Shown here: positions 2,070-13,491 of the stretch, one piece after another
How positions within the stretch are numbered: the stretch's first letter is position 1
Layout of the letters: each line of letters begins with the position of its first letter
Assembly (NCBI GenBank): GCA_031178645.1
Contig: JAPSIP010000015.1
Span: forward strand, 1 to 13,491
Source: Paracoccus sp. (in: a-proteobacteria)
Lineage (GTDB): Bacteria; Pseudomonadota; Alphaproteobacteria; Rhodobacterales; Rhodobacteraceae
Reading direction: 5' to 3'
DNA: 13,491 nt
Translations under genes and position numbers: made by a program
The notes under the pieces: model-generated
The model's database searches: none
What the model was told of the DNA's origin: nothing
What the model saw: the letters and a program-made list of their open reading frames with translations, nothing else

Positions 2070-2729
2070 TCAGGCCAGCGTCTGGCGCATCGCCGCGATC
2101 AGGTCGTGGAAGCGGTCGCCCTGCACGATCACGTGGTCATGCAGCGCCCGCGCCGCGCCTTCGGCGTCACCGTCGCGGATCGCCGTGACGATGGCGTCAT
2201 GTTCCGCGAATGACCGGGTCATGCGGTTCCTGACCTGCAACTGCATCCGGCGGTAAGGTTGCAGCATCGCGTGCAGCCGCGCGGCTTCCTGGGTCAGGAA
2301 GGCATTGTGGGTGGCGCGATAGATGCAGTGGTGGAATTCCGAGTTGCGGGCGTAATAGGCCTCGACTTCGCCCGCCTCGGCCAGGCGGCGGCAGTCCTCG
2401 TGGACCTCGTGGAAGATGTCCAGTTCGGCATGGCTGATGCGGCGGGCGGCAAGGCGGCCGCAGCTTGCCTCGATCTCGGCCATGACCTCGAAGCGTTCTG
2501 CCAGTTCCTCGGGGGACCAATGGGTGACGAAGGTGCCGCGCTTGGGCATGACGCGGACCAGCCCCGAGGCTTCAAGCTGCTGGAACGCCTCGCGGATGGG
2601 GGTGCGCGAGCAGTCGAATTCTTGCGCCAGTGCCTCGGGGTCCAGCCGCGTACCGGGCAGGAAGCGGCCCCGGACGATCGAATCTTCCAGGGCGCGGCGG
2701 ATGCGCAAGGTGTTCGGAACGCTGGTCAT
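2070..2729 (-). CDS. matR: GntR/FCD-family transcriptional regulator of malonate utilisation (MatR-like)
   Basis: This 219-residue regulator has the FadR-subfamily layout. A winged helix-turn-helix spans about residues 7-70, with the recognition-helix signature SRTPIREAFQQLEASGL at 41-57. An all-helical FCD ligand domain covers about 80-210. H133, H177 and H199 match the metal-binding histidines of FCD domains; the usual Asp before the FH motif is Asn129 here. I chose the ATG at 2729 because GGAGGAGA lies just upstream; the frame stays open to about 2915, but those extra codons overlap the divergent matC leader and look non-coding. It is divergent from matC-matA-matB, the same relation as in the Rhizobium mat locus, where MatR is a GntR protein responding to malonate or malonyl-CoA. 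The role is inferred from this context and the family; it could act as repressor or activator. Confidence 0.88.
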   Translation of the reverse strand: MTSVPNTLRIRRALEDSIVRGRFLPGTRLDPEALAQEFDCSRTPIREAFQQLEASGLVRVMPKRGTFVTHWSPEELAERFEVMAEIEASCGRLAARRISHAELDIFHEVHEDCRRLAEAGEVEAYYARNSEFHHCIYRATHNAFLTQEAARLHAMLQPYRRMQLQVRNRMTRSFAEHDAIVTAIRDGDAEGAARALHDHVIVQGDRFHDLIAAMRQTLA

Positions 2730-2788
2730 TCTTTCTCCTCCACAAGCGCAGCCTAGCGGAAACCTGCTCAAACATCCATCACTGATCC

Positions 2789-2823
2789 TGTTATATACAT
2801 CATCTTGTCGCGGGCGTATAACA
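2789..2823. promoter_or_regulatory. Candidate MatR operator and divergent promoter region
   Basis: The 163-base gap between matR and matC holds a locally AT-rich patch in otherwise GC-rich DNA. An inverted repeat pairs TGTTATA (2789-2795) with TATAACA (2817-2823), the half-site centres 28 bases apart. The left arm extends to TGTTATATAC and the right to GTATAACA, each containing a TATAAC-like -10 box in one orientation. TATACA (2794-2799) and TATAAC (2817-2822) stand 17 bases apart and could be a weak -35/-10 pair for matC. FCD-type GntR proteins favour short palindromes around GT..AC, and the TGTATA core on the minus strand resembles, as I recall it, the Rhizobium MatR site TCTTGTA/TACACGA. 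The role is inferred. Confidence 0.4.
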
Positions 2824-2892
2824 TCTGCGGGAGGAGGATTCGTGTGGAGGCGGATCCCCGACGTCGACCATGCAGGAAAAGGGGAGAGCCGC

Positions 2893-4275
2893 ATGACACC
2901 ACATCTGATTTCCATCTATGCACTGGTGCTGATGTTCGTGATCGCGACCATCTGGCCCATCAACATGGGCGTTTTGGCCTTTGTCGGCGCCTTTCTTGTC
3001 GGCACGCTTCTGGCTGCGCAGACCACGGGCGAGATCATCGACGGCTTTCCGGGCGGGCTGTTCCTGACGCTGGTGGGCATCACCTGGCTGTTCGCCTTGG
3101 CGCAGAACAACGGCACCATCGACTGGCTGGTCCGCATGGCCGTTCGCGCGGTCAAGGGCCGCATCGCGGCGATCCCCTGGATCATGTTCGGCATCTCGGC
3201 CCTGCTGACGGCGGTGGGGGCGGTCAGCCCCGGTGCGGTCGCCATTGTCGCGCCCATCGCGCTTGGCTTTGCCTTCCGCTATCACATCAGCCCGCTGCTG
3301 ATGGGCCTGATGGTGGTCCATGGCGCGCAGGCCGGGGGTTTCTCGCCCATCAGCATCTATGGCGGGATCACCAATGGCGTGGTCCAGCAGGCCGGCCTGC
3401 CGCTGTCGGCCATGACCACCTTCGCCGCCAGCTTCTTCGTGAACGCGGCGGTGGCAGGCATCCTGTTCATGGTGCTGGGCGGACGCAGCCTGATCTCCGC
3501 GCGGCTGGATGGCATCGAACCGGTCAACGTCCCCCATGTGGAAATCGCCCGCGCGGCCACCGGCCCGCAGATTTTCGGCGACAGCGAGGCGCAGGCCCTG
3601 ACCAAGCGCGTCAGCCGCGAGGGCGGCGGCGATTCCAACCGTCTTGTGGCCGAGGTCGAGGAAGGGCGCGAACCCGACGGCACGCCTTACCAGATCTTCA
3701 CGCTGGCGGGCCTTGTGCTGCTGGCGGTGCTGGTTCTGGCCTTCAACCTGGACATCGGCTTCGTGGCGCTGACCATCGGCCTGGCCCTGGCGCTGTGGAA
3801 CCCGACCATGCAGAAACGCGCGATGGCGCAGGTCGCCTGGCCGGAAATCATGCTGATCACCGGCGTGTCCACCTATGTCGCGGTGCTGCAGGAGATGGGC
3901 ACCATCGACTTCGTGGGCGATTCGGTGGCGGGCATGGCCTCGCCGCTGCTGGCGGCCCTGATGCTGTTCTTCATCGGGGCGGTGGTGTCAGCCTTTGCAT
4001 CATCCACGGCGGTGCTGGGATCGCTGATCCCGCTGGCGGTGCCCTTCCTGCAGGGCGAAAGCGGCGTCGGCGCGATCGGCTTCATCGCCGGGATGGCCGT
4101 TGCCTCGACCATCGTGGATGTCAGCCCGTTTTCCACCAACGGCGCCCTGGTTCTGGCCAATGCGCATGGCATCGACCGCCAGGCCTTCTTCCGCAAGCTG
4201 CTGAACTATGGCGCCATCGTGACGATCGTGGCACCCGTGGTGCTGTGGCTGATCTTCGTCGTGCTGCCGGGTTGA
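2893..4275 (+). CDS. matC: Malonate/dicarboxylate importer MatC
   Basis: This 460-residue carrier of the ion-transporter superfamily (MatC_N, PF07158) brings malonate through the inner membrane. It has about 12 hydrophobic segments in two halves, joined by a hydrophilic charged loop at about residues 200-255. Each half has a re-entrant signature: GGFSPISIYGGITN at 148-161 and DVSPFSTNG at 409-417. These are the substrate and cation sites in such folds. The N terminus (residues 6-17, with ATIWPINMG soon after) aligns from memory with the Rhizobium MatC start, so I chose the ATG at 2893, preceded by AGGGGAGAG. An in-frame GTG at 2842 behind GGAGGAGG could add 17 polar residues. It is first in the matCAB transcript, 34 bases before matA. 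The assignment rests on the family and on the presence of both malonyl-CoA enzymes next door. Confidence 0.88.
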   Translation: MTPHLISIYALVLMFVIATIWPINMGVLAFVGAFLVGTLLAAQTTGEIIDGFPGGLFLTLVGITWLFALAQNNGTIDWLVRMAVRAVKGRIAAIPWIMFGISALLTAVGAVSPGAVAIVAPIALGFAFRYHISPLLMGLMVVHGAQAGGFSPISIYGGITNGVVQQAGLPLSAMTTFAASFFVNAAVAGILFMVLGGRSLISARLDGIEPVNVPHVEIARAATGPQIFGDSEAQALTKRVSREGGGDSNRLVAEVEEGREPDGTPYQIFTLAGLVLLAVLVLAFNLDIGFVALTIGLALALWNPTMQKRAMAQVAWPEIMLITGVSTYVAVLQEMGTIDFVGDSVAGMASPLLAALMLFFIGAVVSAFASSTAVLGSLIPLAVPFLQGESGVGAIGFIAGMAVASTIVDVSPFSTNGALVLANAHGIDRQAFFRKLLNYGAIVTIVAPVVLWLIFVVLPG

Positions 4276-4309
4276 TCCCGGCCGCGCCCATCCCGCAAAG
4301 GAGAGTGCC

Positions 4310-5683
4310 GTGACAAGGATCGTGCAGACCCCCAGGCAGACCCGCTTCGGCGACCTCTTCGACATGCTGACCGACCGGGGCCGCGCCCTGCTGCGGTGGC
4401 GCGATCCTGCGGGGCGGGTGACCGCGCCCCCCGGCCTGCCCGACATGGGGGAACTGTTGCTGTCCCGCCGGGGCGAGGCTTCGGGCGTGGCCCTGGCCCG
4501 CGCCCTGGTCGCCGCCTTCGAGGAAGCGGACGAGGCCCGGCGGCTGGCGTTCCTTGAAACCCTCGCCGACCGCTTCGGTCCAGATCCCGAGGCCGTGGCG
4601 CGCGCCATGCAGGCCGTCACCCGCGATCCCGCATCGGTCGAGGCCGTCGAGGCGCTGCATGTCGCGGCCGAACCGCGCCGGCAGGAACTGTTCCGCCGCC
4701 TGAACCTTGCCCCCGGCGGCACCGCAGCCCTGGTGCGTATGCGAGAGGAACTGCTGCGCCACCTCAAGGACAGCCCGGCGCTGCGGCGGGTGGACAGCGA
4801 TTTCGCGCATCTGTTCGCGTCCTGGTTCAACCGGGGCTTCCTGGTGCTGCGCCATATCGACTGGAACACGCCCGCCGCGATCCTGGAAAAGATCATCCGC
4901 TATGAAGCCGTCCACGCCATCCGGAACTGGGACGACCTGCGCAACCGCCTGCAGCCGACCGACCGGCGCTGCTATGGCTTCTTCCACCCGCAACTGGTGG
5001 ACGAGCCCCTGATCTTCGTCGAGGTCGCCCTGACCCGCGAGATCCCCGATACCGTGGCCCCCCTGCTGGATCTGGACCGCAAGCCCATCGACGCCGCCGA
5101 GGCCACGACGGCGGTGTTCTACTCCATCTCGAACACGCAGAAGGGACTGGCCGGGGTGTCCTTCGGCAATTTCCTGATCAAGCAGGTGGTCGAGGAGCTG
5201 AAGTCAGAACTCCCCCAGATCCAGACCTTCGTCACCCTGTCGCCTGTGCCGGGCTTCGCCGCCTGGCTGGCCCGCGAACGGGACGGTGGCGAGATGCTGC
5301 CCGCCGACCTGCTGGCCGCGCTGACGCCCTTGGACCAACCGGGCTGGCATGTGGACAGGGAGGCGGCGCAGGCGCTGCGCGAGCCGCTGCTGGCCGCCGC
5401 CGCGATCTATTTCCTGCGCGCCCGCGATGGCAAGGGCCGCGCGGTCGATCCCGTCGCCCGCTTCCACCTGGGCAACGGCGCCTGCCTTGAACGGCTGAAC
5501 GTCCTGGGCGATGTCTCTGCCAATGGATTGAAGCAATCGCATGGGCTGATGGTGAACTATCTTTATGATCCCGACCGGATCGAGGCCAATCACGAGGCCT
5601 TTGCCGAACGCACCGAGATCGCGGCATCCGACGCGGTGCGCCGCCACCTGCCCGCGCCCATCGCCATGAAGGAAAAGCCATGA
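4310..5683 (+). CDS. matA: Malonyl-CoA decarboxylase
   Basis: This enzyme converts malonyl-CoA to acetyl-CoA and CO2 in the cytoplasm. The 457 residues match the usual bacterial length. A helical N-terminal domain (about 1-175) is followed by a GNAT-like catalytic domain. Conserved blocks are FFHPQLVDEPLIFVEVALT (starting about residue 224), VFYSISNTQKGLAGVSFG (269-286), TLSPVPGF (309-316) and FHLGNGACLERLN (385-397). Ser311 and His386 correspond to human MLYCD Ser329 and His423, the catalytic pair, judged by their shared LSPxPGF and FHLxNGA contexts. The start is a GTG at 4310 with AAGGAG six bases upstream. The stop overlaps the matB start by four bases (ATGA), which indicates translational coupling and roughly equal production of the two enzymes. 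No defect is visible. Confidence 0.95.
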   Translation: MTRIVQTPRQTRFGDLFDMLTDRGRALLRWRDPAGRVTAPPGLPDMGELLLSRRGEASGVALARALVAAFEEADEARRLAFLETLADRFGPDPEAVARAMQAVTRDPASVEAVEALHVAAEPRRQELFRRLNLAPGGTAALVRMREELLRHLKDSPALRRVDSDFAHLFASWFNRGFLVLRHIDWNTPAAILEKIIRYEAVHAIRNWDDLRNRLQPTDRRCYGFFHPQLVDEPLIFVEVALTREIPDTVAPLLDLDRKPIDAAEATTAVFYSISNTQKGLAGVSFGNFLIKQVVEELKSELPQIQTFVTLSPVPGFAAWLARERDGGEMLPADLLAALTPLDQPGWHVDREAAQALREPLLAAAAIYFLRARDGKGRAVDPVARFHLGNGACLERLNVLGDVSANGLKQSHGLMVNYLYDPDRIEANHEAFAERTEIAASDAVRRHLPAPIAMKEKP

Positions 5684-7191
5684 CCGCCAACCTGTTCGAC
5701 ATCCTGCAATCCGGCATCGCCGATCCCGATGCCACCGCGATCGAGACCGCTGCGGGCGAACGCATCAGCTATGGCGATCTGGTCGCGCGGACCGGCCGGT
5801 TGGCCAATGCGCTTGTGTCCTTGGGCGTCGCGCCGGGCGACCGTGTGGCGGCCCAGGTGGAAAAATCGGTCGAAGCGATCATCCTTTATCTGGCCACCGT
5901 CAGGGCAGGGGCGGTCTTCCTGCCGCTGAACACCGGCTATACCCCGGCCGAGATCGACTATTTCATCGGCGATGCAACGCCCGCGGTCCTTGTCTGCGAT
6001 CCGGCCAAGGCGGATGCCCTTGCGGAAGGGGCGGGCAGGGCTGGGGCGCGGATCGTGACGCTGGACGGGGGCGGGCAGGGTAGCCTGACCGATGCCGCCG
6101 CAAGCCAGCCTTCCGACTTCGCCACCGTCGCGCGCGCTGCCGATGATCTGGCCGCACTGCTTTATACTTCGGGAACGACGGGGCGGTCGAAGGGGGCGAT
6201 GCTGACGCATGGCAATCTGGTGTCGAACACCCAGGCCCTGCGCGAGGCATGGCGTTACGACGCAAGCGACGTGCTGATCCACGCGCTGCCGATCTTTCAC
6301 ACGCATGGCCTGTTCGTGGCGACCAATGTGACGCTGTTTTCCGGCGCCTCGATGATCTTCCTGCCCAAGTTCGACCCCGACCGGATCATGGACCTGATGG
6401 ACCGCGCCACCGTGCTGATGGGCGTGCCGACCTTCTATGTGCGGCTGTTGCAGGACGACCGGCTGGATCGCGCCACGACGGCGCATATGCGGCTGTTCAT
6501 TTCCGGGTCCGCCCCGCTTCTGGCGGAAACGCATCGCGACTGGCAGGCCCGCACAGGCCACGCGATCCTGGAACGATACGGCATGACGGAAACGAACATG
6601 AATGCTTCGAACCCCTATGAGGGCGACCGGATCGCGGGCACCGTAGGGATGCCCCTGCCGGGGGTCGAGATCATCGTGACCGATCCCGAAACCGGCGCCG
6701 AACTGCCCGGGGGTGAGATCGGCATGATCGAGGTGCGCGGCCCCAACGTCTTCAAGGGCTATTGGCAGATGCCGGAAAAGACCGCTGCCGAACTGCGACC
6801 GAACGGCTTCTTCATCACCGGCGATCTGGGGAAGTTCGATGACCGGGGCTATCTGCACATCGTCGGGCGCGGCAAGGATCTGATCATCACCGGCGGCTTC
6901 AACGTCTATCCCAAGGAAATCGAGACCGAGATCGACGCCCTTCCCAGCGTGGTCGAATCCGCCGTGATCGGCCTGCCGCACCGGGATTTCGGCGAAGGCG
7001 TGACGGCGGTTGTCGTGCCCTCGGGGCCGGACGCCATTTCCGAAAAGGATGTTCTTGCGGCGCTCGACGGGCGGCTTGCCCGGTTCAAGCAGCCCAAGCG
7101 CGTGCTGTTCCTGGACGAACTGCCGCGCAATACGATGGGCAAGGTCCAGAAGAACCTGCTGCGCGACAGGTTCGCCGATCTGTATCGCTGA
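5680..7191 (+). CDS. matB: Malonyl-CoA synthetase (malonate-CoA ligase)
   Basis: This ATP-dependent acyl-CoA synthetase of the ANL superfamily makes malonyl-CoA, AMP and pyrophosphate from malonate, ATP and CoA. Its 503 residues match the MatB length. Motifs occur in order: the P-loop-like LYTSGTTGRSKG at 161-172; RLFISGSAPL at 271-280, whose Arg271 lies where MatB enzymes use an arginine for the distal carboxylate; ERYGMTETNMN at 298-308; GDLGKFDDRG from 381; GRGKDLIITGGFNVYPKE (hinge region); and PRNTMGKVQK with catalytic Lys488. Lys488 has the same number and setting as the lysine whose acetylation inactivates MatB in Rhodopseudomonas, so this enzyme may be controlled in the same way. It overlaps matA by four bases and is last in the operon. 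Malonate specificity follows from the operon and the Met-Asn stretch after MTET. Confidence 0.95.
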   Translation: MTANLFDILQSGIADPDATAIETAAGERISYGDLVARTGRLANALVSLGVAPGDRVAAQVEKSVEAIILYLATVRAGAVFLPLNTGYTPAEIDYFIGDATPAVLVCDPAKADALAEGAGRAGARIVTLDGGGQGSLTDAAASQPSDFATVARAADDLAALLYTSGTTGRSKGAMLTHGNLVSNTQALREAWRYDASDVLIHALPIFHTHGLFVATNVTLFSGASMIFLPKFDPDRIMDLMDRATVLMGVPTFYVRLLQDDRLDRATTAHMRLFISGSAPLLAETHRDWQARTGHAILERYGMTETNMNASNPYEGDRIAGTVGMPLPGVEIIVTDPETGAELPGGEIGMIEVRGPNVFKGYWQMPEKTAAELRPNGFFITGDLGKFDDRGYLHIVGRGKDLIITGGFNVYPKEIETEIDALPSVVESAVIGLPHRDFGEGVTAVVVPSGPDAISEKDVLAALDGRLARFKQPKRVLFLDELPRNTMGKVQKNLLRDRFADLYR

Positions 7192-7213
7192 AGCTGTCCC
7201 GAAAGGACGATGG

Positions 7214-7236
7214 GGCGGGCCTTGGCCCGCCTTTTT
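7214..7236 (+). terminator. Rho-independent terminator of the matCAB operon
   Basis: A perfect stem pairs GGCGGGCC (7214-7221) with GGCCCGCC (7224-7231). The apex must open to CTTG, leaving seven G:C-rich pairs. TTTTT follows at 7232-7236. It lies 23 bases after the matB stop and before zinT, so it ends the malonate transcript and insulates zinT. Confidence 0.9.
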
Positions 7237-7272
7237 CATTCTTGAACAGCCTGACGCCTCCTGATAATCGAA

Positions 7273-7293
7273 CGTAATAACATATCATTTACG
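7273..7293. promoter_or_regulatory. Candidate Zur-type operator before zinT
   Basis: An AT-rich dyad, CGTAA-N11-TTACG, ends 10 bases before the zinT start and overlaps its GGAG ribosome-binding site. Inside it, ATAACATATCAT is an imperfect palindrome of the AT-rich sort seen in alphaproteobacterial Zur boxes. The zinT genes of other bacteria are repressed by Zur with zinc, so the position and gene fit. The half-sites match at the outer five bases only, so this is a candidate, not a clear consensus match. A GATAAT box at 7263-7268 with TTGAAC at 7242-7247 has a short 15-base spacer and could be the promoter. Confidence 0.4.
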
Positions 7294-7303
7294 GAGATGA
7301 CGG

Positions 7304-7987
7304 ATGGCAAGGGTTCAAGCAATGGCGGCAGTTCTGGCCGTGGCGATGGCAGCAGGATCGCCGGTTCTGGCGCAAAGCCACGACCATAGCCACGATCACG
7401 ATCATGCCCACGGTCATGGCCATGACCACGCGCATGACCACGCCCATGCCGACAAGTCGGTCTATGACGGCTATTTCGACGATGCGCAGGTCCAGGACCG
7501 TCCCTTGTCGGACTGGCAGGGCAACTGGCAGTCGGTTTACCCGCTGCTGACGGATGGCACGCTGGATCCCGTCTTGGCCAGGAAGGCCGAGAAGGGCGAC
7601 AAGAGCGTCGAGGAATACCGCGCCTATTACGAGACGGGCTACAAGACCGACGTGGACCGCATCATCATCGAGGGCGACCAGGTCACCTTCCATCGCGGCG
7701 ACCAGTCGGTCCAGGGCCGCTATGCCTCGGACGGGTTCGAGATCCTGACCTATGCCAAGGGCAATCGCGGCGTCCGCTTCATCTTCCAGAAGACCGACGG
7801 TGACGAGGCCGCGCCGCAGTTCATCCAGTTCAGCGACCACCGCATCGCGCCCGAAGTGTCGGACCATTACCACCTGTACTGGGGCGATGACCGCGCCGCC
7901 CTGCTGGAAGAGGTGACAAACTGGCCGACCTTCTATCCGGCCTCGCTGGACAAGGACGGGGTGCTGGCCGAGATGCTGGCCCACTGA
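7304..7987 (+). CDS. zinT: Periplasmic zinc-binding protein ZinT
   Basis: The 227-residue product is a lipocalin-like periplasmic metal carrier that binds zinc (and cadmium) and in enterobacteria passes zinc to ZnuA. Residues 1-23 are a Sec signal peptide ending VLA before Gln24. Residues 26-48 are a His-rich tail in which alternate residues are His (12 His), alternating with Asp, Ala, Gly or Ser. From about residue 55 the match to E. coli ZinT is close, from FDDAQVQDRPLSDWQGNWQS to the C-terminal NWPTFYP and EMLAH. His179, His188 and His190 in FSDHRIAP and DHYH are the three structural zinc ligands. The ATG at 7304 has GGAG seven bases upstream. The gene stands alone between the mat terminator and convergent opgD, and no znuABC or zur is in the window. 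The operator candidate at 7273-7293 suggests induction by zinc shortage. Confidence 0.95.
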   Translation: MARVQAMAAVLAVAMAAGSPVLAQSHDHSHDHDHAHGHGHDHAHDHAHADKSVYDGYFDDAQVQDRPLSDWQGNWQSVYPLLTDGTLDPVLARKAEKGDKSVEEYRAYYETGYKTDVDRIIIEGDQVTFHRGDQSVQGRYASDGFEILTYAKGNRGVRFIFQKTDGDEAAPQFIQFSDHRIAPEVSDHYHLYWGDDRAALLEEVTNWPTFYPASLDKDGVLAEMLAH

Positions 7988-7991
7988 CCCG

Positions 7992-9599
7992 TCAGGGGGT
8001 GCGGGCCAGCAGCGTGCGAAGCTGCGACGGGAATAGCTGAAGGATCAGCGTTTCCGTCATGGCCGTGCCCTTGTGGTCCACATAGACGCGCAGGTCGATG
8101 GGGGCCTGGTCGTTTTCGGCAAAGCTCAGGTCGAACAGGGCGCGCCAGTAATCGGTGCCCACGACCGGATAGACGACGGTGTTCGACACCTGCGCCTGTC
8201 CGGTCGTGACCTTGATCGTTAGCCCGTCCTCGCGCGACAGACCGGTCAGGTAAGGTCCCGCGAAGTCGCAGACGACCTTGACCACGCCCTTGGGGCGCGG
8301 CTGGCCGGGAACGCCGCCTGCGCCAAGGCGGGTGGCGGTGAAATGGGCGATGGGATTGGCGGCCGGATTGTCGCGGACCCAGTCCAGCCGATAGGCGAAG
8401 TCGTGGCTCTGGCCCTTGGCGGTTGGTTCGGCCGGCTGCCAGAAGGCCACGATATTGTCGTGGATCTCGTCATCCGTGCGCAATTCGGTCAGCACCACCG
8501 CACCATTGCCCCAGTCGCCCTGCGGCGTGATCCAGGCGCTTGCACGGCGTTCGTAGAAGACGCCGTCGTCCTGGTATTGCGCGAAATCCCGTTCCCGCTG
8601 CATCAGCCCGAAGCCCTTGACCCCTGGCGAGGCAAAGCTGTTCACCATCGTGCCGGGCGGGTTGTTCAGCGGACGCCAGATCCGCTCGCCATTGGCGGCA
8701 AGGATCTCCAGCCCGTCGGAATCATGCACCTCGGGGCGCCAGTCGGGCGAGACATGGGGCGTGTTCTTGCCGAACCAGAACATCGAGGTCAGCGGCGCGA
8801 TCCCCAGCCGGTCCACCGCCTCGCGCAGGAAGACGGTCGCGCTGATGTCCTGGGTCACGCCATTGCCGCGCCGCGATTCGATGCGATAGGCGCCGGTGGC
8901 TCGGGGGCTGTCCAGCAGCGCATAGGTGGTCAGGTCGCCATTATCCGCGGGTTCCAGCCAGAAATGGGTGAACAGCGGAAACTCTTCGGGGCCGTCGGGG
9001 ATGGCAGTGTCGATGGCCAGGCCGCGCGCCGATAGTCCGAACTGTCCACTGTAACCCGAGGTGCGCCAGTAGGACGCGCCCAAAAAGGCCATCCAGTCGA
9101 TTTCCGTTTGAGCGTCCTGGACGCGAAAGCCCGCAAAGCCCGTGGTGCGGGTCAACTGCCGCGCGGGATTGCCCTCGGGAATGTCGAACAGGTCCAGCGA
9201 GAAGGGCAGCTCGGTCGCGATGCCGTCGCTGACGGTATGAAGGCGTACCGGGTTGCGGAAATACATGCCGGGGAAGAAAGCCTGGACCGGGGACCGCTCG
9301 CCCTCGCCGCGCCACAGGCTGCGGTCGGCGCGAAAGCGCACCTGGTTGTGGTTGTCGTAGTCCACCTGGTCCAGGATGTCCGGGTCTGCGACCTGCGGCG
9401 GAACATGGGGCTTGGCAGCCATGTCGCGCGCCGTGTCGCGCAGCCAGTCGAACGAGAAAGGCTGACCTTCGCCCGATGCCGTGGCCTGGGCGCGGGCCAG
9501 ATGCGGCAGCAGGAAGAAAGCCCCGCTGCCCAGGGCGGCTTGCAACAGGTGGCGGCGGCTGAAACGGTCGCTGAACATGGAAACCCGGATGGCTGACAT
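7992..9599 (-). CDS. opgD: Periplasmic glucan biosynthesis protein of the OpgG/OpgD (MdoG) family, Tat-exported
   Basis: This 535-residue periplasmic protein belongs to the family that shapes osmoregulated periplasmic glucans (GH186; E. coli OpgD is a beta-1,2-glucanase). Residues 14-20 (SRRHLLQ) form a twin-arginine motif, followed by a hydrophobic stretch and an ARA cleavage site near 37. Tat export is a trait of OpgD rather than OpgG, hence the symbol. The catalytic-domain landmarks FPGMYFRNPV (109-118), TSMFWFGKN (271-279), RERDFAQYQDDGVFYERR (335-352) and NIVAFWQP (382-389) are intact. The Asp-rich YQDDG segment resembles the region of the proposed catalytic acid. The C-terminal part is the Ig-like domain. 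The start at 9599 has only a poor ribosome-binding site, and Met8 (9578) is an alternative that keeps the Tat motif. No opgH or other glucan synthase gene is in the window. Its stop is 4 bases from the zinT stop. Confidence 0.9.
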   Translation of the reverse strand: MSAIRVSMFSDRFSRRHLLQAALGSGAFFLLPHLARAQATASGEGQPFSFDWLRDTARDMAAKPHVPPQVADPDILDQVDYDNHNQVRFRADRSLWRGEGERSPVQAFFPGMYFRNPVRLHTVSDGIATELPFSLDLFDIPEGNPARQLTRTTGFAGFRVQDAQTEIDWMAFLGASYWRTSGYSGQFGLSARGLAIDTAIPDGPEEFPLFTHFWLEPADNGDLTTYALLDSPRATGAYRIESRRGNGVTQDISATVFLREAVDRLGIAPLTSMFWFGKNTPHVSPDWRPEVHDSDGLEILAANGERIWRPLNNPPGTMVNSFASPGVKGFGLMQRERDFAQYQDDGVFYERRASAWITPQGDWGNGAVVLTELRTDDEIHDNIVAFWQPAEPTAKGQSHDFAYRLDWVRDNPAANPIAHFTATRLGAGGVPGQPRPKGVVKVVCDFAGPYLTGLSREDGLTIKVTTGQAQVSNTVVYPVVGTDYWRALFDLSFAENDQAPIDLRVYVDHKGTAMTETLILQLFPSQLRTLLARTP

Positions 9600-9752
9600 T
9601 TCCGGGCATCACATGTTCGCTTCCGGCGCGAATGCAAGGCCGGGCCTTTGCTTCGGCGGTCCCTTGCCGCCGAATTGCCCGCCACTGTCGCAGCCTTGCA
9701 ATTAAGGGCGCCGGGCCGCGACGTGCAGCCCGGCACAGGGCCTGTTTTCCGA
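9600..9752 (-). other. 153-base gap between the RTX gene and opgD, with hairpins
   Basis: No open frame with coding character is seen. GCCGGGC (9710-9716) pairs with GCCCGGC (9728-9734) across an 11-base loop just after the RTX stop. On the minus strand only CCCTTAATT follows, so it is a poor intrinsic terminator and may only protect the 3' end. CGGCGG (9654-9659) pairs with CCGCCG (9667-9672) within the likely opgD leader. Because both flanking genes read leftward, RTX transcription could continue into opgD. Confidence 0.35.
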
Positions 9753-10490
9753 TCACCAGATGAAGTCGTCGCCGTCCAGTTGGTTCAGGCGCGTATCCTC
9801 GATCACAAGGCGATGGGCGCCCGCCTTGATGATGACATCCGACCCGCTCTGGCTGGCGGCGGCGCGGATGCTGGCAAAGCTGTTGAAGCCGGCAAAGGAC
9901 GACAGGTCGATCTCGTCATCGCCATTCTCGAAGTCGCGGATACGGTCGGTGCCGCCGTTGAAGACGAAGCGGTCCGACCCCTCGCCGCCGATCAGCGTAT
10001 CGTTGCCGGTGCCGCCGTTCAGCACGTCATTGCCCTCGCCGCCGCTGAGGAAATCGTTGCCCGCCTCGGCCCGCAGCACGTCGTCCCCCTCGTGGCCCAG
10101 CAGGCGGTCGTTGCCGCCGCCGGAACGAACCCGGTCGTTGCCTTCGCCCGCGCTGATCGTGTCGTTGCCCCCCAGCGAGACCGAGACATCGTTACCCTCG
10201 CCCAGGGTGATGGTGTTGTGGCCCGCGCCCGCATTGACGGTGTCATTGCCTTCGCCTGCGTTGATGCGGTCATTGCCGCCATTGGCCCAGATGCGGTCGT
10301 TGCCCTCGCCGCCGATCAGGCGGTTGTGGCCGGCACCGCCGCGGATGTCGTCATTGCCTTCGCCGCCGTCGATGGTGTCGTTGCCGCCGCCGCCCGACAG
10401 GGTGTCGTCGCCCGACCGGCCATAGATCAGGTCGGCCACGCTGGTGCCGTTGTAACGGTTGTCGCCGTCATTTCCGCGATAGGTCGCCAT
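9753..10490 (-). CDS. Small RTX calcium-binding protein with a type I secretion-like C terminus
   Basis: This 245-residue, strongly acidic protein is almost entirely RTX repeat. After a short head, 17 contiguous nonapeptides of the form GNDxUxGGE run from residue 27 to 179 without a break. They form a calcium-dependent parallel beta-roll. The C-terminal part has DRIRDFENGDDEIDLSSF (182-199) and ends in DDFIW, like the uncleaved secretion signals of type I exported proteins in alphaproteobacteria. There is no N-terminal signal peptide and no enzyme domain. The ATG at 10490 has AGGAGA seven bases upstream; an upstream in-frame extension of 38 codons lacks such a site and overlaps leader structure. 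Repeats 4 and 7 have GHN instead of GND, replacing a ligand Asp, and the middle repeats lose the GG pair. No type I exporter is nearby. An ECF-like promoter lies at 10620-10648. The partner and substrate are unknown. Confidence 0.88.
   Translation of the reverse strand: MATYRGNDGDNRYNGTSVADLIYGRSGDDTLSGGGGNDTIDGGEGNDDIRGGAGHNRLIGGEGNDRIWANGGNDRINAGEGNDTVNAGAGHNTITLGEGNDVSVSLGGNDTISAGEGNDRVRSGGGNDRLLGHEGDDVLRAEAGNDFLSGGEGNDVLNGGTGNDTLIGGEGSDRFVFNGGTDRIRDFENGDDEIDLSSFAGFNSFASIRAAASQSGSDVIIKAGAHRLVIEDTRLNQLDGDDFIW
9954..10412 (-). repeat. Seventeen 27-base tandem repeats coding RTX nonapeptides
   Basis: The DNA has a 27-base period that follows from the nonapeptide unit. On the plus strand it appears as recurring TCGTTGCC plus CCGCC blocks. 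The units have diverged from one another at silent and variable positions, so this is an old array, not a recent expansion. Confidence 0.9.
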
Positions 10491-10556
10491 CTTCGTTTCT
10501 CCTGCAAGGGCGGTGTCGGAAGAACGCGCCGCCCCGCCCGTGGCAGCCGCGCCCGT

Positions 10557-10572
10557 CCCGGCTGACGCCGGG
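10557..10572. other. Hairpin in the RTX leader
   Basis: CCCGGC (10557-10562) pairs perfectly with GCCGGG (10567-10572) across a TGAC loop. On the plus strand TTTCTT follows, so it has the look of a weak terminator against transcription entering from the left. On the minus strand it would sit in the roughly 125-base untranslated leader of the RTX gene. Either role is inference. Confidence 0.35.
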
Positions 10573-10619
10573 TTTCTTGGCAGGGGCCGGGGTCTGTCCC
10601 GCATCCGCCTGATGAAGGG

Positions 10620-10648
10620 GTTACGGGCGCGGACCCGCGCCTATTCCC
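10620..10648 (-). promoter_or_regulatory. Candidate ECF-type promoter of the RTX gene
   Basis: Read on the minus strand, GGGAATA is followed by a spacer and CGTAAC. The spacer between GGAATA and CGTAAC is the perfect 16-base palindrome GGCGCGGGTCCGCGCC. The -35 GGAAT and -10 CGT boxes with this spacing are of the kind recognised by alphaproteobacterial ECF sigma factors. Sixteen of 20 positions (GGGAATA-N3-GCGGGTCYGC) are shared with the site before the S8 protease at 12012-12039. It lies 130 bases before the RTX start codon and behind the terminator of the anti-sigma gene. Confidence 0.45.
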
Positions 10649-10678
10649 GGTGCAGCGACATTTTTTGGGGGCAGGCAG

Positions 10679-10705
10679 AAAAAAGGCCCCTGCGAGGGGG
10701 GCCTT
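10679..10705 (-). terminator. Rho-independent terminator of the sigma/anti-sigma operon
   Basis: On the minus strand AAGGCCCC (10705-10698) pairs with GGGGCCTT (10690-10683) across a seven-base loop and runs directly into a T tract of six (to 10679). It lies 25 bases after the anti-sigma stop and separates that operon from the RTX gene's own promoter. Confidence 0.9.
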
Positions 10706-10730
10706 GGCGCGGCAAGGGGGCAGGCGCGGC

Positions 10731-11444
10731 CTAGTCGGCCAGGGCCGCGGCCTCGTCTTCCGGGGTCAGCGGATCGCCCGCGCCGGTTTCGGCCAGCCAG
10801 TCGTCAAGCGCCGCGATGTCGCCGGATGCGGGGACATAGCCATCGGATGCGGTCATGTCGCTGGCGAATTGCCGCTGCCATCTGTCGCCCTGCCGGCAGG
10901 CCACGCTGACCGTCATGCCGGCATCTTGTTCCGTTTCGTATTCCCGGCAAAAGGCACCCTCTGCCGTGCGATAGGACGCGATCATGGTCAGGTCCCGCCC
11001 GTCCCCCAGTTCGGTCACCTGGCCCGAGGGCAGGCTGTCCAGGGCCGCGACCTCTGCCTGCGGCAAGCCTGCGGGGGCGCCCATCTGCCACCAGGCAAGC
11101 CCCACCACCGCCGCGGTCACGGCTGCGGCAAGCGCGGCCCAGGGCGCGCGGTTGGCATTGGCCGGCATGGGGGGCGTCGCGGACAAGGGGGGTGCGGTCG
11201 GGGCCACCGAGCCCGAAACCTGGACCGCGCTGCTGGCCGCACGGATGCGGGCGATCAGGTCCTTGTCGGAAGGCGCCGGGGCGGCCGAGGACAAGATCTG
11301 CAGCCGCGCCCGCGTTTCGGTGAACAGCCGCAGCCGGGCCTGCGCCTGAGGGTCGCGGGCCACGGCTGCGGAAACGCGCGCGGCCTCGGCCTGATCCAGT
11401 TCGCCGTCCGCCAGGGCCATCAGGGTTTCGTCGTCAATCTGCAC
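10731..11444 (-). CDS. Membrane-anchored anti-sigma factor
   Basis: The product (237 residues) should hold the adjacent ECF sigma factor at the membrane. Residues 1-45 form a short helical anti-sigma domain of the type DETLMALADGELD...AARVSAAVARDP, without a zinc motif. A Pro/Ala/Ser linker leads to one membrane helix (about 101-119), leaving about 115 residues in the periplasm. The periplasmic part has a Cys166/Cys183 pair in a CREYE...ACRQGDRWQ context that resembles 17-kDa surface-antigen-type domains and may form a disulfide. I chose the GTG at 11444 because AAGGAG stands six bases before it; an ATG at 11477 in the same frame has no ribosome-binding site. It follows the sigma gene by 45 bases and is followed by a terminator. 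Identity rests on the architecture and on sigma linkage; the signal it senses is unknown. Confidence 0.85.
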   Translation of the reverse strand: MQIDDETLMALADGELDQAEAARVSAAVARDPQAQARLRLFTETRARLQILSSAAPAPSDKDLIARIRAASSAVQVSGSVAPTAPPLSATPPMPANANRAPWAALAAAVTAAVVGLAWWQMGAPAGLPQAEVAALDSLPSGQVTELGDGRDLTMIASYRTAEGAFCREYETEQDAGMTVSVACRQGDRWQRQFASDMTASDGYVPASGDIAALDDWLAETGAGDPLTPEDEAAALAD

Positions 11445-11489
11445 GGCCGGCTCCTTTCGAACGGGTGTTTCTGGCATACGGGTTGCGCG

Positions 11490-11981
11490 TCATTTTATTC
11501 CCAGCCTTTCCGCCAAGGCCAGCCTGGCGCGGGACAGGCGGCTCATGACCGTGCCCTTGGGGATGTCCAGCACCTCGGCGGCCTCGGCATAGCTGAGTTC
11601 CTCGATGCAGATCAGATGCAGGATCTCGGCCTGTTCCGGGGGCAGGGTCTTCATCGCCTGCTGGGTGGCCTGCAGCATCAGCCGCGCCTCGACCGCCCGG
11701 TCGCCGTCATCGGGCAGGGCCTCGGGGATGTCGAAGACATCGACCTGCACGCCCTCGGTCCGCTGGCGGCGGGTCAGGTCGATGAAGGCATTTCGGGTGA
11801 TGCGGAACAGCCAGGGCTCCAGCCGGGCTGCGGGATCATAGCTGCCTGCGGCCCGGATCGCGCGTTCCACCGTGGTCTGGACCAGGTCGTCGGCCAGATC
11901 CGCCCGCCGGGCCAGCGACAGCGCATAGCGGCGAAGATTGGGCAGAAGCGTGATCAAAGCCTCGCCGAATGCTGGGTCCAT
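11490..11981 (-). CDS. ECF-family RNA polymerase sigma factor
   Basis: The 163-residue protein has only sigma regions 2 and 4, the minimal ECF layout. Region 2 spans about residues 9-75 with RRADLADDLVQTTVERA, which contacts core polymerase, and WLFRITRNAFID near the -10 recognition part. Region 4 spans about 105-158 with LPPEQAEILHL, ELSYAEAAEVLDIPKGTVMSR as a helix-turn-helix, and RLSRAR. The ATG at 11981 follows AGAGGGCGGC. It starts the operon with the anti-sigma gene. It is divergent from the S8 protease gene, and two ECF-like promoter elements flank the operon, so those genes are its likely regulon. No copy of that element points at the sigma gene itself, so autoregulation is not shown. 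I cannot place it in a numbered ECF group with certainty. Confidence 0.95.
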   Translation of the reverse strand: MDPAFGEALITLLPNLRRYALSLARRADLADDLVQTTVERAIRAAGSYDPAARLEPWLFRITRNAFIDLTRRQRTEGVQVDVFDIPEALPDDGDRAVEARLMLQATQQAMKTLPPEQAEILHLICIEELSYAEAAEVLDIPKGTVMSRLSRARLALAERLGIK

Positions 11982-12011
11982 GCCGCCCTCTTGGATCTTT
12001 TTCCCGACCGG

Positions 12012-12039
12012 GGGAATATTTGCGGGTCTGCCGCGTCAT
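12012..12039 (+). promoter_or_regulatory. Candidate ECF-type promoter of the S8 protease gene
   Basis: GGGAATA (12012-12018) is followed by TTT, GCGGGTCTGC and then CGTCAT (12034-12039). It shares 16 of 20 positions with the element before the RTX gene, and the -10 CGT is shifted by one base relative to that site. The start codon lies 33 bases after the element, a normal leader length. The spacer holds a small GCGG/CCGC dyad where the RTX site has a full palindrome. Confidence 0.45.
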
Positions 12040-12060
12040 TGTCCAGAAACGAACTGTCCA
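12040..12060. repeat. Direct repeat TGTCCA, period 15, between the sigma and protease genes
   Basis: TGTCCA occurs at 12040-12045 and again at 12055-12060 in a 91-base divergent gap. On the minus strand the pair reads TGGACA, close to a -35 box (TTGACA) for the sigma gene, with CAAATA 17 bases further on as a weak -10. It may be a housekeeping promoter or an operator; the evidence is thin. Confidence 0.3.
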
Positions 12061-12072
12061 AAGGGGGCCACC

Positions 12073-13272
12073 ATGCCAAACCCGCTGCTGTTTCTGATGA
12101 TCGCCCTGCTGGTCCTTGCGGGCCAGCCGCAGCGTCATGCCGACGGCTGGTCGCTGGTCGCGACTGCCCTGGCCGATGACGATGACGACGATGATGATGA
12201 TGACGACGACGACGATGATGATGACGACGACCGAGTGGTCCGCCGTGCGCGGCCCGCCGCCCCCGCGCCCCTGCCCATCCGGGCCGAGAACGAGGTTCTG
12301 GCGCGCGGCCTGGCCGAAGCCGACCTTGCCACCCTCCAGGCCGAGGGGTTCCAGATCCTGCAGCAGCGGGAACTGTCCGAAGGCGGCAACCTGACCCGGC
12401 TTCTGAAGCCGGGGGCGCTGACCATGGACCAGGCCCGCGACCGCGTCCGCGCCCTGGCCGCTGCGGCAGAAGCCGATTTCAACCATTTCTACCGCAGCGA
12501 GCAGGCAGGGCAGGGCACGCCATGCACGGGGGCCGATTGCCTTGCCCGCGACATGATCGGCTGGCCCGCAGGGCTTGCAGGCTGCGCCGCGCTGCCGCGC
12601 ATCGGCATGGTCGATACGGGGCTGAACGCCGATCACGCGGCGCTGTCGGATGCCCGGATCCGGGTCCACCGGATCGACACCGGGGCCGCGCCTTCGGATC
12701 TGCTGCATGGAACGGCGGTGGCCGCGCTTCTGGTGGGCGACCGCGACAGCCGCAGCCCCGGCCTTGTCCCGGGCGCGGAACTGATCGCTGTAGATGCCTT
12801 CCAGAAGGTCGCCCGCGATCAGCGCGCCGATGCCTTCGGCCTGATCGAGGCCCTGGATTACCTGGCCTCGCAACAGGTGCGCATCGTCAACCTGTCGCTG
12901 GCGGGACCGCCGAACGACGCCCTTGCCCGCCAGGTCGAGGAGATGGCGGCAGACGGCATCCTGCTGATCGCCGCCGCCGGCAATGGCGGGCCGCGCGCGG
13001 CGCCTGCCTTTCCAGCGGCCTATGACCAGGTGCTGGCGGTGACGGCGGTGGATCGGCGCGGCCAGGTTTATCGCCGTGCAAACCGGGGCGACCATATCGA
13101 TCTGGCCGCGCCGGGGGTGAATGTCTGGACGGCGGCGTCGATCAGCGGGGCGAGATTCAGCGCTTCGCCCCGGCCCAGGGCGACGATTTGCGCGGCGCGC
13201 AGCTTCCACCACGGTAGGAGGGCGCCGACGATGCGTTTGAAGTCCCGCAGGTCGCTGGATTCGCCCGAATAA
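12073..13272 (+). CDS. Secreted subtilisin-like (S8) serine protease with a polyaspartate tract, 3'-disrupted
   Basis: The open frame codes 399 residues. Residues 1-34 form a signal peptide ending in TALA; residues 35-53 are 19 consecutive Asp; a basic and Pro/Ala-rich linker follows. A helical prodomain-like part (about 70-150) includes a Cys pair (CTGADC). The subtilase fold then shows the catalytic Asp181 (GMVDTGLN), His212 (LHGTAVA) and oxyanion Asn304 (AAAGNGG), and reaches APGVNVWTAASISGARF by 362. The GTSxAxP motif with the nucleophilic Ser should follow within about ten residues but does not occur in any frame. Instead the reading turns into an Arg/Ser-rich tail and stops at 13272. 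The protein as coded should be inactive. Start ATG 12073 follows AAAGGGGG. An ECF-like promoter precedes it, so the intact ancestor was probably a sigma-controlled exported protease. It can be viewed as a pseudogene. Confidence 0.82.
   Translation: MPNPLLFLMIALLVLAGQPQRHADGWSLVATALADDDDDDDDDDDDDDDDDDDRVVRRARPAAPAPLPIRAENEVLARGLAEADLATLQAEGFQILQQRELSEGGNLTRLLKPGALTMDQARDRVRALAAAAEADFNHFYRSEQAGQGTPCTGADCLARDMIGWPAGLAGCAALPRIGMVDTGLNADHAALSDARIRVHRIDTGAAPSDLLHGTAVAALLVGDRDSRSPGLVPGAELIAVDAFQKVARDQRADAFGLIEALDYLASQQVRIVNLSLAGPPNDALARQVEEMAADGILLIAAAGNGGPRAAPAFPAAYDQVLAVTAVDRRGQVYRRANRGDHIDLAAPGVNVWTAASISGARFSASPRPRATICAARSFHHGRRAPTMRLKSRRSLDSPE
12175..12231 (+). repeat. (GAY)19 trinucleotide tract coding polyaspartate
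   Basis: Nineteen GAC/GAT codons in a row lie directly after the predicted signal-peptide cleavage site. The two codons are mixed in short runs, which lowers slippage compared with a pure repeat and suggests the acidic stretch is selected for. Length change by slippage would stay in frame. Confidence 0.95.
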
Positions 13273-13491
13273 GGCGTCTTGGGCGTCCATTCCTTGCGCA
13301 GCTGCTCGGGCGCGACGTCCCTGGGCTGGAGGTCTCTGCCCTCCAGCGCCGCCCTCAGGCACCAGTAGCGCAGACCCGGGCCCCGGCCTTCGCTGTGGCG
13401 CGACCCGATCAGTCGGTCGGGTTTGCCGGGAAAGCGCCGTTTGAGGCGGGCGGCGATCTCGGCGTGGGGCGCCACGCCGTGGAAAATCGCC
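13068..13491 (-). CDS. Unrecognised protein, N terminus beyond the window, fused through a junction
   Basis: From the window end down to about 13159 the minus strand has the best coding signal; the frame stays open to a TAA at 13068, inside the protease gene. The visible product begins AIFHGVAPHAEIAARLKRRF and includes GLRYWCLRAALEGRDL, LRKEWTPKTPYSGES and FKRIVGALLPWWKLRA. I do not recognise the family. The codons differ from the rest of the window: AGG and AGA arginines and AAA lysines occur within a short stretch. The last part (about 13068-13158) is antisense to genuine subtilase codons, so the native C terminus is probably lost or lies within a few codons of the junction. It could be a transposase or other mobile-element gene, a neighbouring gene moved by a rearrangement, or an assembly join. 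Confidence 0.4.
   Translation of the reverse strand, partial: AIFHGVAPHAEIAARLKRRFPGKPDRLIGSRHSEGRGPGLRYWCLRAALEGRDLQPRDVAPEQLRKEWTPKTPYSGESSDLRDFKRIVGALLPWWKLRAAQIVALGRGEALNLAPLIDAAVQTFTPGAARSIWSPRFARR
13325..13347. other. Hairpin within the 3' foreign-looking segment
   Basis: GCTGGAGG (13325-13332) pairs perfectly with CCTCCAGC (13340-13347) across a seven-base loop. A second perfect stem, GGCGTGG (13461-13467) with CCACGCC (13472-13478), lies 113 bases further on. Both sit inside the minus-strand reading frame. No function is evident. Confidence 0.3.

What the first reader, a model, noticed from the sequence alone, without database searches (positions are those of the whole stretch)
10620..12039. 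Same ECF-like promoter element before the RTX gene and the S8 protease gene, flanking a sigma/anti-sigma operon
GGGAATA-N3-GCGGGTCYGC followed by CGT occurs on the minus strand at 10648-10620 (towards RTX) and on the plus strand at 12012-12039 (towards the protease). Sixteen of 20 aligned positions agree, and each copy lies at a sensible distance upstream of its gene. ECF sigma factors usually read GGAA-type -35 and CGT-type -10 boxes. The simplest reading is a local regulon of one sigma factor. A rough chance estimate for a 16/20 match between two GC-rich gaps is not negligible, so the placement matters more than the match alone.
Basis: partly seen in the sequence, partly recalled or inferred. 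Interest (0 to 1): 0.72.

Follow-up and report, generated by a model that had tools for sequence, protein, structure and literature searches.

The report
One sigma factor's three local promoters
A Paracoccus-type bacterium carries a small stress-type gene switch whose protein very probably turns on a neighbouring secreted protease, a calcium-binding protein and its own inhibitor through the same short DNA signal; the switch is a known kind, but what it controls in this group looks largely undescribed.

Summary
The two elements are real and where stated. They are very probably promoters of the ECF sigma factor encoded between them. The informative part is GGGAATA (-35) and CGT (-10), 15 or 16 bases apart. 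The shared middle (GCGGGTC) is chance: it is gone before RTX in the nearest relative while both boxes persist. GGGAATA-N15/16-CGTA occurs only twice in the 2.03-Mb draft genome, before RTX and before anti-sigma; the protease copy ends CGTC. The protease element, at fixed N15 spacing, is in 30 of 32 usable orthologous loci (0.02 expected after shuffling); the RTX element is in 7 of 7 loci where RTX follows anti-sigma. The system matches Sinorhizobium meliloti RpoE6 (group ECF26), whose protease and intragenic anti-sigma promoters others mapped: a known kind. New here is the comparative regulon: RTX, permease and glycerate kinase nearby; exported poly-Asp proteins, an L,D-transpeptidase-like protein and vitamin-K-carboxylase homologues elsewhere in the genus. 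No transcription was measured and the signal is unknown. Two highly conserved cysteines in the anti-sigma factor's predicted periplasmic part suggest a thiol sensor.

The parts
12012..12036 (+). ECF26-type promoter of the S8 protease gene: GGGAATA-N15-CGT, predicted start about 12046
   Evidence: 30 of 32 usable orthologous loci carry GGAA[TG]A-N15-CGT at this place; same boxes and spacing as the mapped SMa0142 promoter
10622..10648 (-). ECF26-type promoter of the RTX gene: GGGAATA-N16-CGTA, predicted start about 10613
   Evidence: boxes conserved and spacer not in the five relatives aligned
   Evidence: S. meliloti ecfR6 promoter lies at the end of rpoE6
10683..10705 (-). terminator-like hairpin with T run between anti-sigma and the RTX promoter
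   Evidence: 4 such sites found in 9500-12600, 2.0 expected by shuffling; a hairpin at the same place in the five relatives, by eye
11490..11981 (-). ECF sigma factor gene, group ECF26 by relationship to RpoE6
10731..11444 (-). anti-sigma gene, likely start GTG 11444 (the longer frame opens at 11477); conserved C177 and C194 (numbering of the 248-aa frame)
9753..10490 (-). RTX calcium-binding nonapeptide-repeat protein, likely start 10490 (MATYRGND)
12073..13152 (+). S8 (subtilase) protease gene with, by eye, an N-terminal signal and poly-Asp tract; cut off at 13152 where the contig departs from its relatives

Best explanation
The elements are promoters of the ECF sigma factor encoded between them, a member of group ECF26 related to S. 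meliloti RpoE6. Model: the sigma factor is held by a membrane-anchored anti-sigma factor. An envelope signal, possibly thiol-reactive because two cysteines of the predicted periplasmic domain are highly conserved, frees it. It then transcribes the divergent S8 protease gene (GGAATA-N15-CGT), the RTX gene behind a terminator-like hairpin (GGAATA-N16-CGT) and, from a promoter inside its own last codons, the anti-sigma gene. In 31 of 32 genus loci no such element precedes the sigma gene itself, so the built-in loop is negative (more anti-sigma) rather than autocatalytic. Shown by sequence: elements, positions, conservation, co-occurrence with the sigma gene. Inferred by homology: promoter function and anti-sigma action. 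Guess: the signal, and what protease and RTX protein do.
For: Protease element in 30 of 32 usable loci at exactly N15 (0.022 expected after shuffling); the two others are one-base variants at the same spacing. Anti-sigma element in 31 of 32 loci, 25 at one identical place. In 32 sigma genes 26 of the 30 ATA codons among 305 Ile codons lie in the last four codons. A matrix built only from protease promoters finds sites before RTX (7 of 7 loci with RTX next to anti-sigma), SLC13 permease (11 of 11) and glycerate kinase (9 of 9 usable; a few of these loci are near-duplicates). GGGAATA-N15/16-CGTA: 2 matches in the 2.03-Mb own genome, both here, reversed control 0. Over 125 genus genomes GGGAATAA-N14/15-CGTA has 118 hits against 18 for the reversed control: 80 within 5 kb of the sigma gene, 33 elsewhere in 24 of 58 sigma-positive genomes, 5 in 4 of 67 sigma-negative genomes. 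S. meliloti RpoE6 promoters mapped by others have the same boxes, including SMa0142 and one inside rpoE6 for ecfR6 (PMC6180224; found again in pSymA).
Against: No transcript was mapped in Paracoccus. RTX has no own site in 8 of 8 loci where it follows glycerate kinase (co-transcription assumed) and none in L089. The window RTX element scores lowest of the seven RTX sites (9.7 bits; 1 of 200 shuffles reached it). The protease boxes look invariant partly because GGAA[TG]A and CGT were required in the search. Genomes are related, so counts are not independent. In some relatives outside the genus the element precedes the sigma gene (L177, L188, L191), so the negative-only loop is not general. ECF15 and ECF26 factors cross-talk in S. 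meliloti (PMC6180224).
Confidence: 0.9

Rival explanations
1. The elements belong to the general stress sigma factor (EcfG, group ECF15), not to the local one.
For: Both groups use GGAA-type -35 and CGT-type -10 boxes, and RpoE6 and RpoE2 regulons overlap in S. meliloti (PMC6180224).
Against: The -35 box is GGAATA in 27 of 30 distinct protease promoters (GGAAGA 2, GGATTA 1; the search itself required GGAA[TG]A except for one hand-added variant), whereas RpoE2 targets in the Table 1 passages of PMC6180224 mostly read GGAAC. A 36-41% sigma homologue is listed for many genus genomes with and without the ECF26 gene, and the two placed in the tree group with RpoE5, ECF15; the element instead follows the ECF26 gene (distant sites in 24 of 58 against 4 of 67 genomes).
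Confidence: 0.06
2. Chance resemblance of two GC-rich gaps.
Against: Fixed spacing in 30 of 32 loci, a third element between the two, and only two strict matches in 2.03 Mb.
Confidence: 0.01
3. Only the protease and anti-sigma elements are functional; the RTX element is a weak relic and RTX is made by read-through or another promoter.
For: Lowest matrix score of the RTX sites (9.7); long leader of about 120 nt; RTX lacks an own element in P. denitrificans.
Against: Seven of 7 loci with this gene order keep it; GGAATA and CGTAA are invariant and the spacer is not in the window and five relatives (G051 has TG instead of GG just before GAATA's GG, i.e. CTGGAATA); a terminator-like hairpin separates RTX from anti-sigma; RTX genes on another contig or 11 kb away carry the element too (L159, L155).
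Confidence: 0.08

Closest known systems
Sinorhizobium meliloti RpoE6-EcfR6-SMa0142 module (group ECF26)
   Same: Sigma factor divergent from a serine protease (S8 by tblastn), anti-sigma downstream, protease promoter GGGAATA-N15-CGT listed among promoters mapped by 5'-RACE or RNA-seq, RpoE6-dependent anti-sigma promoter at the end of the sigma gene (PMC6180224); sigma 51% identical; both anti-sigma cysteines kept.
   Different: No RTX or glycerate kinase match and only SLC13 matches of E 0.45 or worse in the 30 kb fetched around it; its neighbouring targets are SMa0139, SMa0146 and SMa0148. The rpoE6 promoter itself does not match the consensus; the authors argue for autogenous regulation from ecfR6 expression.
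P. denitrificans PD1222 plasmid 1 cluster (PDEN_RS27890 to PDEN_RS22725, L070)
   Same: S8 protease divergent from sigma, anti-sigma, then a calcium-binding RTX gene.
   Different: SLC13 permease and glycerate kinase, each with its own element, lie between anti-sigma and RTX; RTX has none.
S. meliloti RpoE1 and RpoE4 (ECF26, sulfite response)
   Same: Same group and promoters of the GGAATA/GT type; anti-sigma partners (PMC3511301 and PMC6180224, passages).
   Different: RpoE1 and RpoE4 control sulfite oxidation genes; no divergent protease is mentioned for them in the passages read; their sequences were not compared here.
Caulobacter sigF-nrsF
   Same: Anti-sigma factor with two conserved, probably periplasmic cysteines needed for control (PMC3511200, passages).
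   Different: Different ECF group (ECF16 according to PMC6180224) and a different anti-sigma protein; only an analogy for the sensing idea.

Membership tests
ECF26 | Sigma factor groups with a known ECF26 member and apart from ECF15 and ECF16 | tested here: met
   Tree of 45 rows: 37-row clade with RpoE6 and the window, support 92/93 (just short of the tool's star of 95/80); RpoE5 (ECF15) groups with other Paracoccus homologues; RpoE7 (ECF16) and the ECF29-like row sit on very long branches, and the tool warns of long-branch joins. RpoE1, RpoE3 and RpoE4 were not included.
ECF26 | Promoter -35 GGAATA, -10 GT (consensus as stated in PMC6180224) | tested here: met
ECF26 | Serine protease divergent from sigma (the RpoE6 arrangement, called widely conserved in PMC6180224) | tested here: met
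   also in the first 14 of the 80 loci (L174-L187)
ECF26 | Anti-sigma: N-terminal anti-sigma domain, one membrane span, periplasmic C-terminal domain | tested here: inconclusive
   NCBIfam anti-sigma model hit at 41 bits, below its cut-off of 100, and no Pfam match; conserved DGEL motif and cysteine pair; hydrophobic stretch near 114-131 by eye. Structure prediction could not be run.
ECF26 | Official ECF26 profile model | not testable with these tools
   No ECF classification library on hand
ECF26 | Target expression depends on the sigma factor | not testable with these tools
   Needs an experiment
ECF15 (EcfG) | -35 GGAAC-type box | tested here: not met
RTX toxin | Score over the RTX haemolysin model's cut-off | tested here: not met
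   91.5 bits against 1000; a short protein made mainly of repeats

The most novel reading that the evidence does not exclude
In Paracoccus and some relatives this ECF26 factor runs an envelope programme built on exported, extremely acidic proteins: poly-Asp proteins, RTX repeats and a poly-Asp-tagged subtilase, together with homologues of the vitamin-K-dependent gamma-carboxylase (HTTM plus VKGC lumenal domain). If those enzymes modify the acidic proteins (carboxylation of Glu, or even of Asp), a sigma factor would control a bacterial analogue of the animal Gla-protein pathway, with the protease as its processing enzyme. The window genome shows only the protease and RTX arm; the VKGC domain was not found in it (71.5% complete) or in its close relative G101.
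Probability: 0.2. Interest if true: 0.85.

Novelty: new member of a known kind. Interest (0 to 1): 0.5.

Why it matters
RpoE6 of S. meliloti has mapped target promoters but its authors could not define a role (PMC6180224). Tying its relatives across a genus to RTX and poly-Asp exported proteins, a permease with glycerate kinase and carboxylase homologues gives a concrete set of functions to test, and P. denitrificans PD1222, a laboratory strain, carries the core cluster. The anti-sigma promoter written into the last sigma codons is a clean case of DNA-level selection on codons (rare ATA kept at one place), and the conserved cysteine pair gives a testable sensing hypothesis.

Tried and rejected
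The 28-base string as a regulatory word was rejected: its middle is not conserved and loose matches are no commoner than the reversed control. A known structured RNA in the RTX leader: no Rfam match in the window at gathering scores; not pursued. Sigma-70-like promoters in 9500-12600: none, so what transcribes the sigma gene is unknown. The YkuD protein search with the L138 protein was too wide (125 of 125 genomes at E<=1e-40); only the 9 genomes with matches at 67% identity or more are informative: 7 sigma-positive and 2 with an RpoE6-like paralogue (L102, L169). A first test for poly-Asp genes beside carboxylase genes used flanks that were too short (1 of 25, control 0 of 21); repeated with longer regions and a changed detector it gave 18 of 25 loci against 5 of 78 control loci; the controls were not matched for genus. 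One search used a wrong stretch for G101; corrected. Anti-sigma rows: one search used 34 sequences its script could delimit. Of 13 others looked at afterwards 9 show the cysteine pair, L092 and L100 were not resolved, L074 is cut by the contig end and L101 follows an interrupted sigma gene. Literature searches listed no paper on a Paracoccus ECF26 regulon or on sigma-controlled bacterial carboxylase homologues; several listings were capped (for example 8 of 1,821), titles and abstract starts were seen, only open-licence papers are held, and the ECF classification papers themselves were not read.

Full report
What was checked. The window is contig G000:C171 of a 2.03-Mb draft genome, 71.5% complete. 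The sigma factor's closest matches among plasmid records are Paracoccus, and G101 of the same genus matches the window at 94.4% over 2500-13152. Both stated elements are present. Gene order: RTX repeat gene, anti-sigma gene and ECF sigma gene on the minus strand, S8 protease divergent on the plus strand.

Which part carries the signal. In 33 orthologous loci (window, two plasmid records, 30 loci from unnamed genus genomes taken from the top matches, not chosen by motif), the region between sigma and protease holds GGAA[TG]A-N15-CGT in 30; one is cut by the contig end (L096), one reads GGATTA (L079) and one reads AGT in place of CGT (L092), the last two at the same spacing. Shuffling gives 0.022 loci on average for 32 usable regions. 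The region of the predicted start (GTCCAG) is also conserved. The spacer is variable, and before RTX the string GCGGGTC is absent in all five relatives aligned, while GGAATA and CGTAA are invariant.

A third element. Scanning 401 kb of loci with a matrix built only from protease promoters showed a further site at the 3' end of the sigma gene. It overlaps the codons GGA ATA before the stop. It is present as GGAATA-N15/16-CGT near the sigma stop in 31 of 32 loci, 25 at the identical place. In these 32 genes only 30 of 305 isoleucine codons are ATA, and 26 of them sit in the last four codons, which points to selection on the DNA. In the window it is 11502-11477. In S. meliloti the ecfR6 promoter reported inside rpoE6 (PMC6180224) lies at the end of that gene too. 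Before the sigma gene itself, 1 of 32 loci has a site of 12 bits or more (L091).

The RTX gene. Of 16 loci with usable RTX upstream sequence (L093 was left out because its match starts late), 7 have RTX directly after anti-sigma and all 7 have a site; 8 have RTX after glycerate kinase and none has a site of its own; L089 has RTX elsewhere and no site. In the glycerate-kinase type, permease (11 of 11) and glycerate kinase (9 of 9 usable; L079 left out) have sites. A terminator-like hairpin separates anti-sigma from RTX in the window (where such hairpins number 4 against 2.0 expected) and a similar hairpin is seen in the five relatives. RTX genes 11 kb away (L155) or on another contig (L159) also carry the element.

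Genome-wide. In the own genome GGGAATA-N15/16-CGTA occurs twice, before RTX and before anti-sigma. In 125 genus genomes, 58 have the sigma gene at E<=1e-50. The pattern GGGAATAA-N14/15-CGTA has 118 hits, the reversed control 18: 80 within 5 kb of the sigma gene, 33 elsewhere in 24 of 58 sigma-positive genomes, and 5 in 4 of 67 others (Fisher p 2.4e-6, not corrected for relatedness). By my reading, with Pfam run on examples only, 26 of the 33 distant sites precede genes of recurring types: poly-Asp exported proteins 9, YkuD L,D-transpeptidase-like 5, glycerate kinase 3, VKGC homologue 3, RTX 2, CbiA-like 2, SLC13 1, second S8 1; 7 are unassigned, among them one before what looks like rpoC. Of the 5 sites in sigma-negative genomes one (G105) precedes a poly-Asp gene and the other 4 are unassigned; G105 and G131 carry more distant ECF26-like sigma factors.

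Carboxylase homologues. Two proteins downstream of such sites (L141, L148) match PF05090 and PF22777, the VKGC lumenal domain (5e-73 and 1.6e-38 for L141). PF22777 is found in 27 of 125 genomes: 23 of 58 sigma-positive and 4 of 67 others, of which two (G052, G105) carry an RpoE6-like paralogue and two (G033, G129) show only short partial matches. Ten of 24 usable loci have a site of 12 bits or more before the gene and 14 do not (L260 had no usable upstream sequence). An exported poly-Asp frame lies within about 5 kb in 18 of 25 loci, against 5 of 78 control loci without VKGC (controls not matched for genus, frames found by a simple text rule).

Beyond the genus. Of 80 named loci fetched with a sigma alignment, the first 14 (L174-L187; L174 is titled Paracoccus, the other 13 are other genera) all have a divergent S8 relative; 12 of 14 have the element in the divergent region and 13 of 14 at the sigma 3' end. 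Among the other 66, many lack the protease, the element or both. In L177, L188 and L191 an element precedes the sigma gene, so autoregulation probably occurs elsewhere.

Classification. The window sigma factor falls in a clade with RpoE6 (ECF26), apart from RpoE5 (ECF15), support 92/93, and its promoters match the ECF26 consensus stated in PMC6180224 (section 7 in full, other passages including part of Table 1). That paper describes rpoE6's divergence from a serine protease gene as widely conserved in ECF26. The window is therefore a new member of a known kind.

Mechanism. The anti-sigma factor has a conserved N-terminal DGEL region, a hydrophobic stretch and a C-terminal domain with two cysteines invariant in the 34 sequences aligned, EcfR6 among them; they are the only cysteines in 30 of the 34. 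Of 13 further loci 9 show the pair and 4 could not be judged. In Caulobacter two conserved cysteines of the anti-sigma factor NrsF are needed for control (PMC3511200, passages), and two ECF26 factors of S. meliloti respond to sulfite (PMC3511301, passages). A thiol or disulfide sensor is therefore plausible but untested. The protease might act on the anti-sigma factor or on the exported acidic proteins; nothing here decides.

Limits. No expression data in Paracoccus; relatedness of genomes not modelled; own genome incomplete; structure prediction unavailable; no VKGC domain or distant element was found in the window's own genome.

Noticed in passing
13153-13491: The last 339 bases match none of the fetched loci; the protease gene is cut at 13152, and the minus strand encodes a piece resembling the anti-phage protein Avs3a (padloc 1.3e-18; NCBIfam 1.1e-17). 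Either an assembly chimera or a real junction.
   Followed up: partly
11477 and 10604: The longest frames of anti-sigma (11477) and RTX (10604) probably start too early; conserved starts are GTG 11444 and ATG 10490.
   Followed up: yes
2416-7191: Apparent malonate-use operon: MatC-type transporter, malonyl-CoA decarboxylase, malonyl-CoA synthase.
   Followed up: no
7304-9599: ZinT zinc-recruitment protein gene beside an MdoG periplasmic glucan gene.
   Followed up: no
12150-12240: Long run of Asp codons (GAY repeats) in the protease N-terminus; tract length differs between relatives, by eye.
   Followed up: no
L139 1749-2801, L146, L178 7455-8549: About 350-aa protein with a weak CbiA-type nucleotide-binding match (L139, below cut-off) preceded by the same element in Paracoccus and in a Tepidamorphaceae record.
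   Followed up: partly
L102, L103, L169: Second, more RpoE6-like ECF26 lineage in some Paracoccus genomes; an S8 relative was found by tblastn beside L102 and L103.
   Followed up: partly
L038 / L101: Genome G019 has a sigma gene interrupted by a stop codon and a protease match in two pieces, suggesting decay of the module.
   Followed up: no
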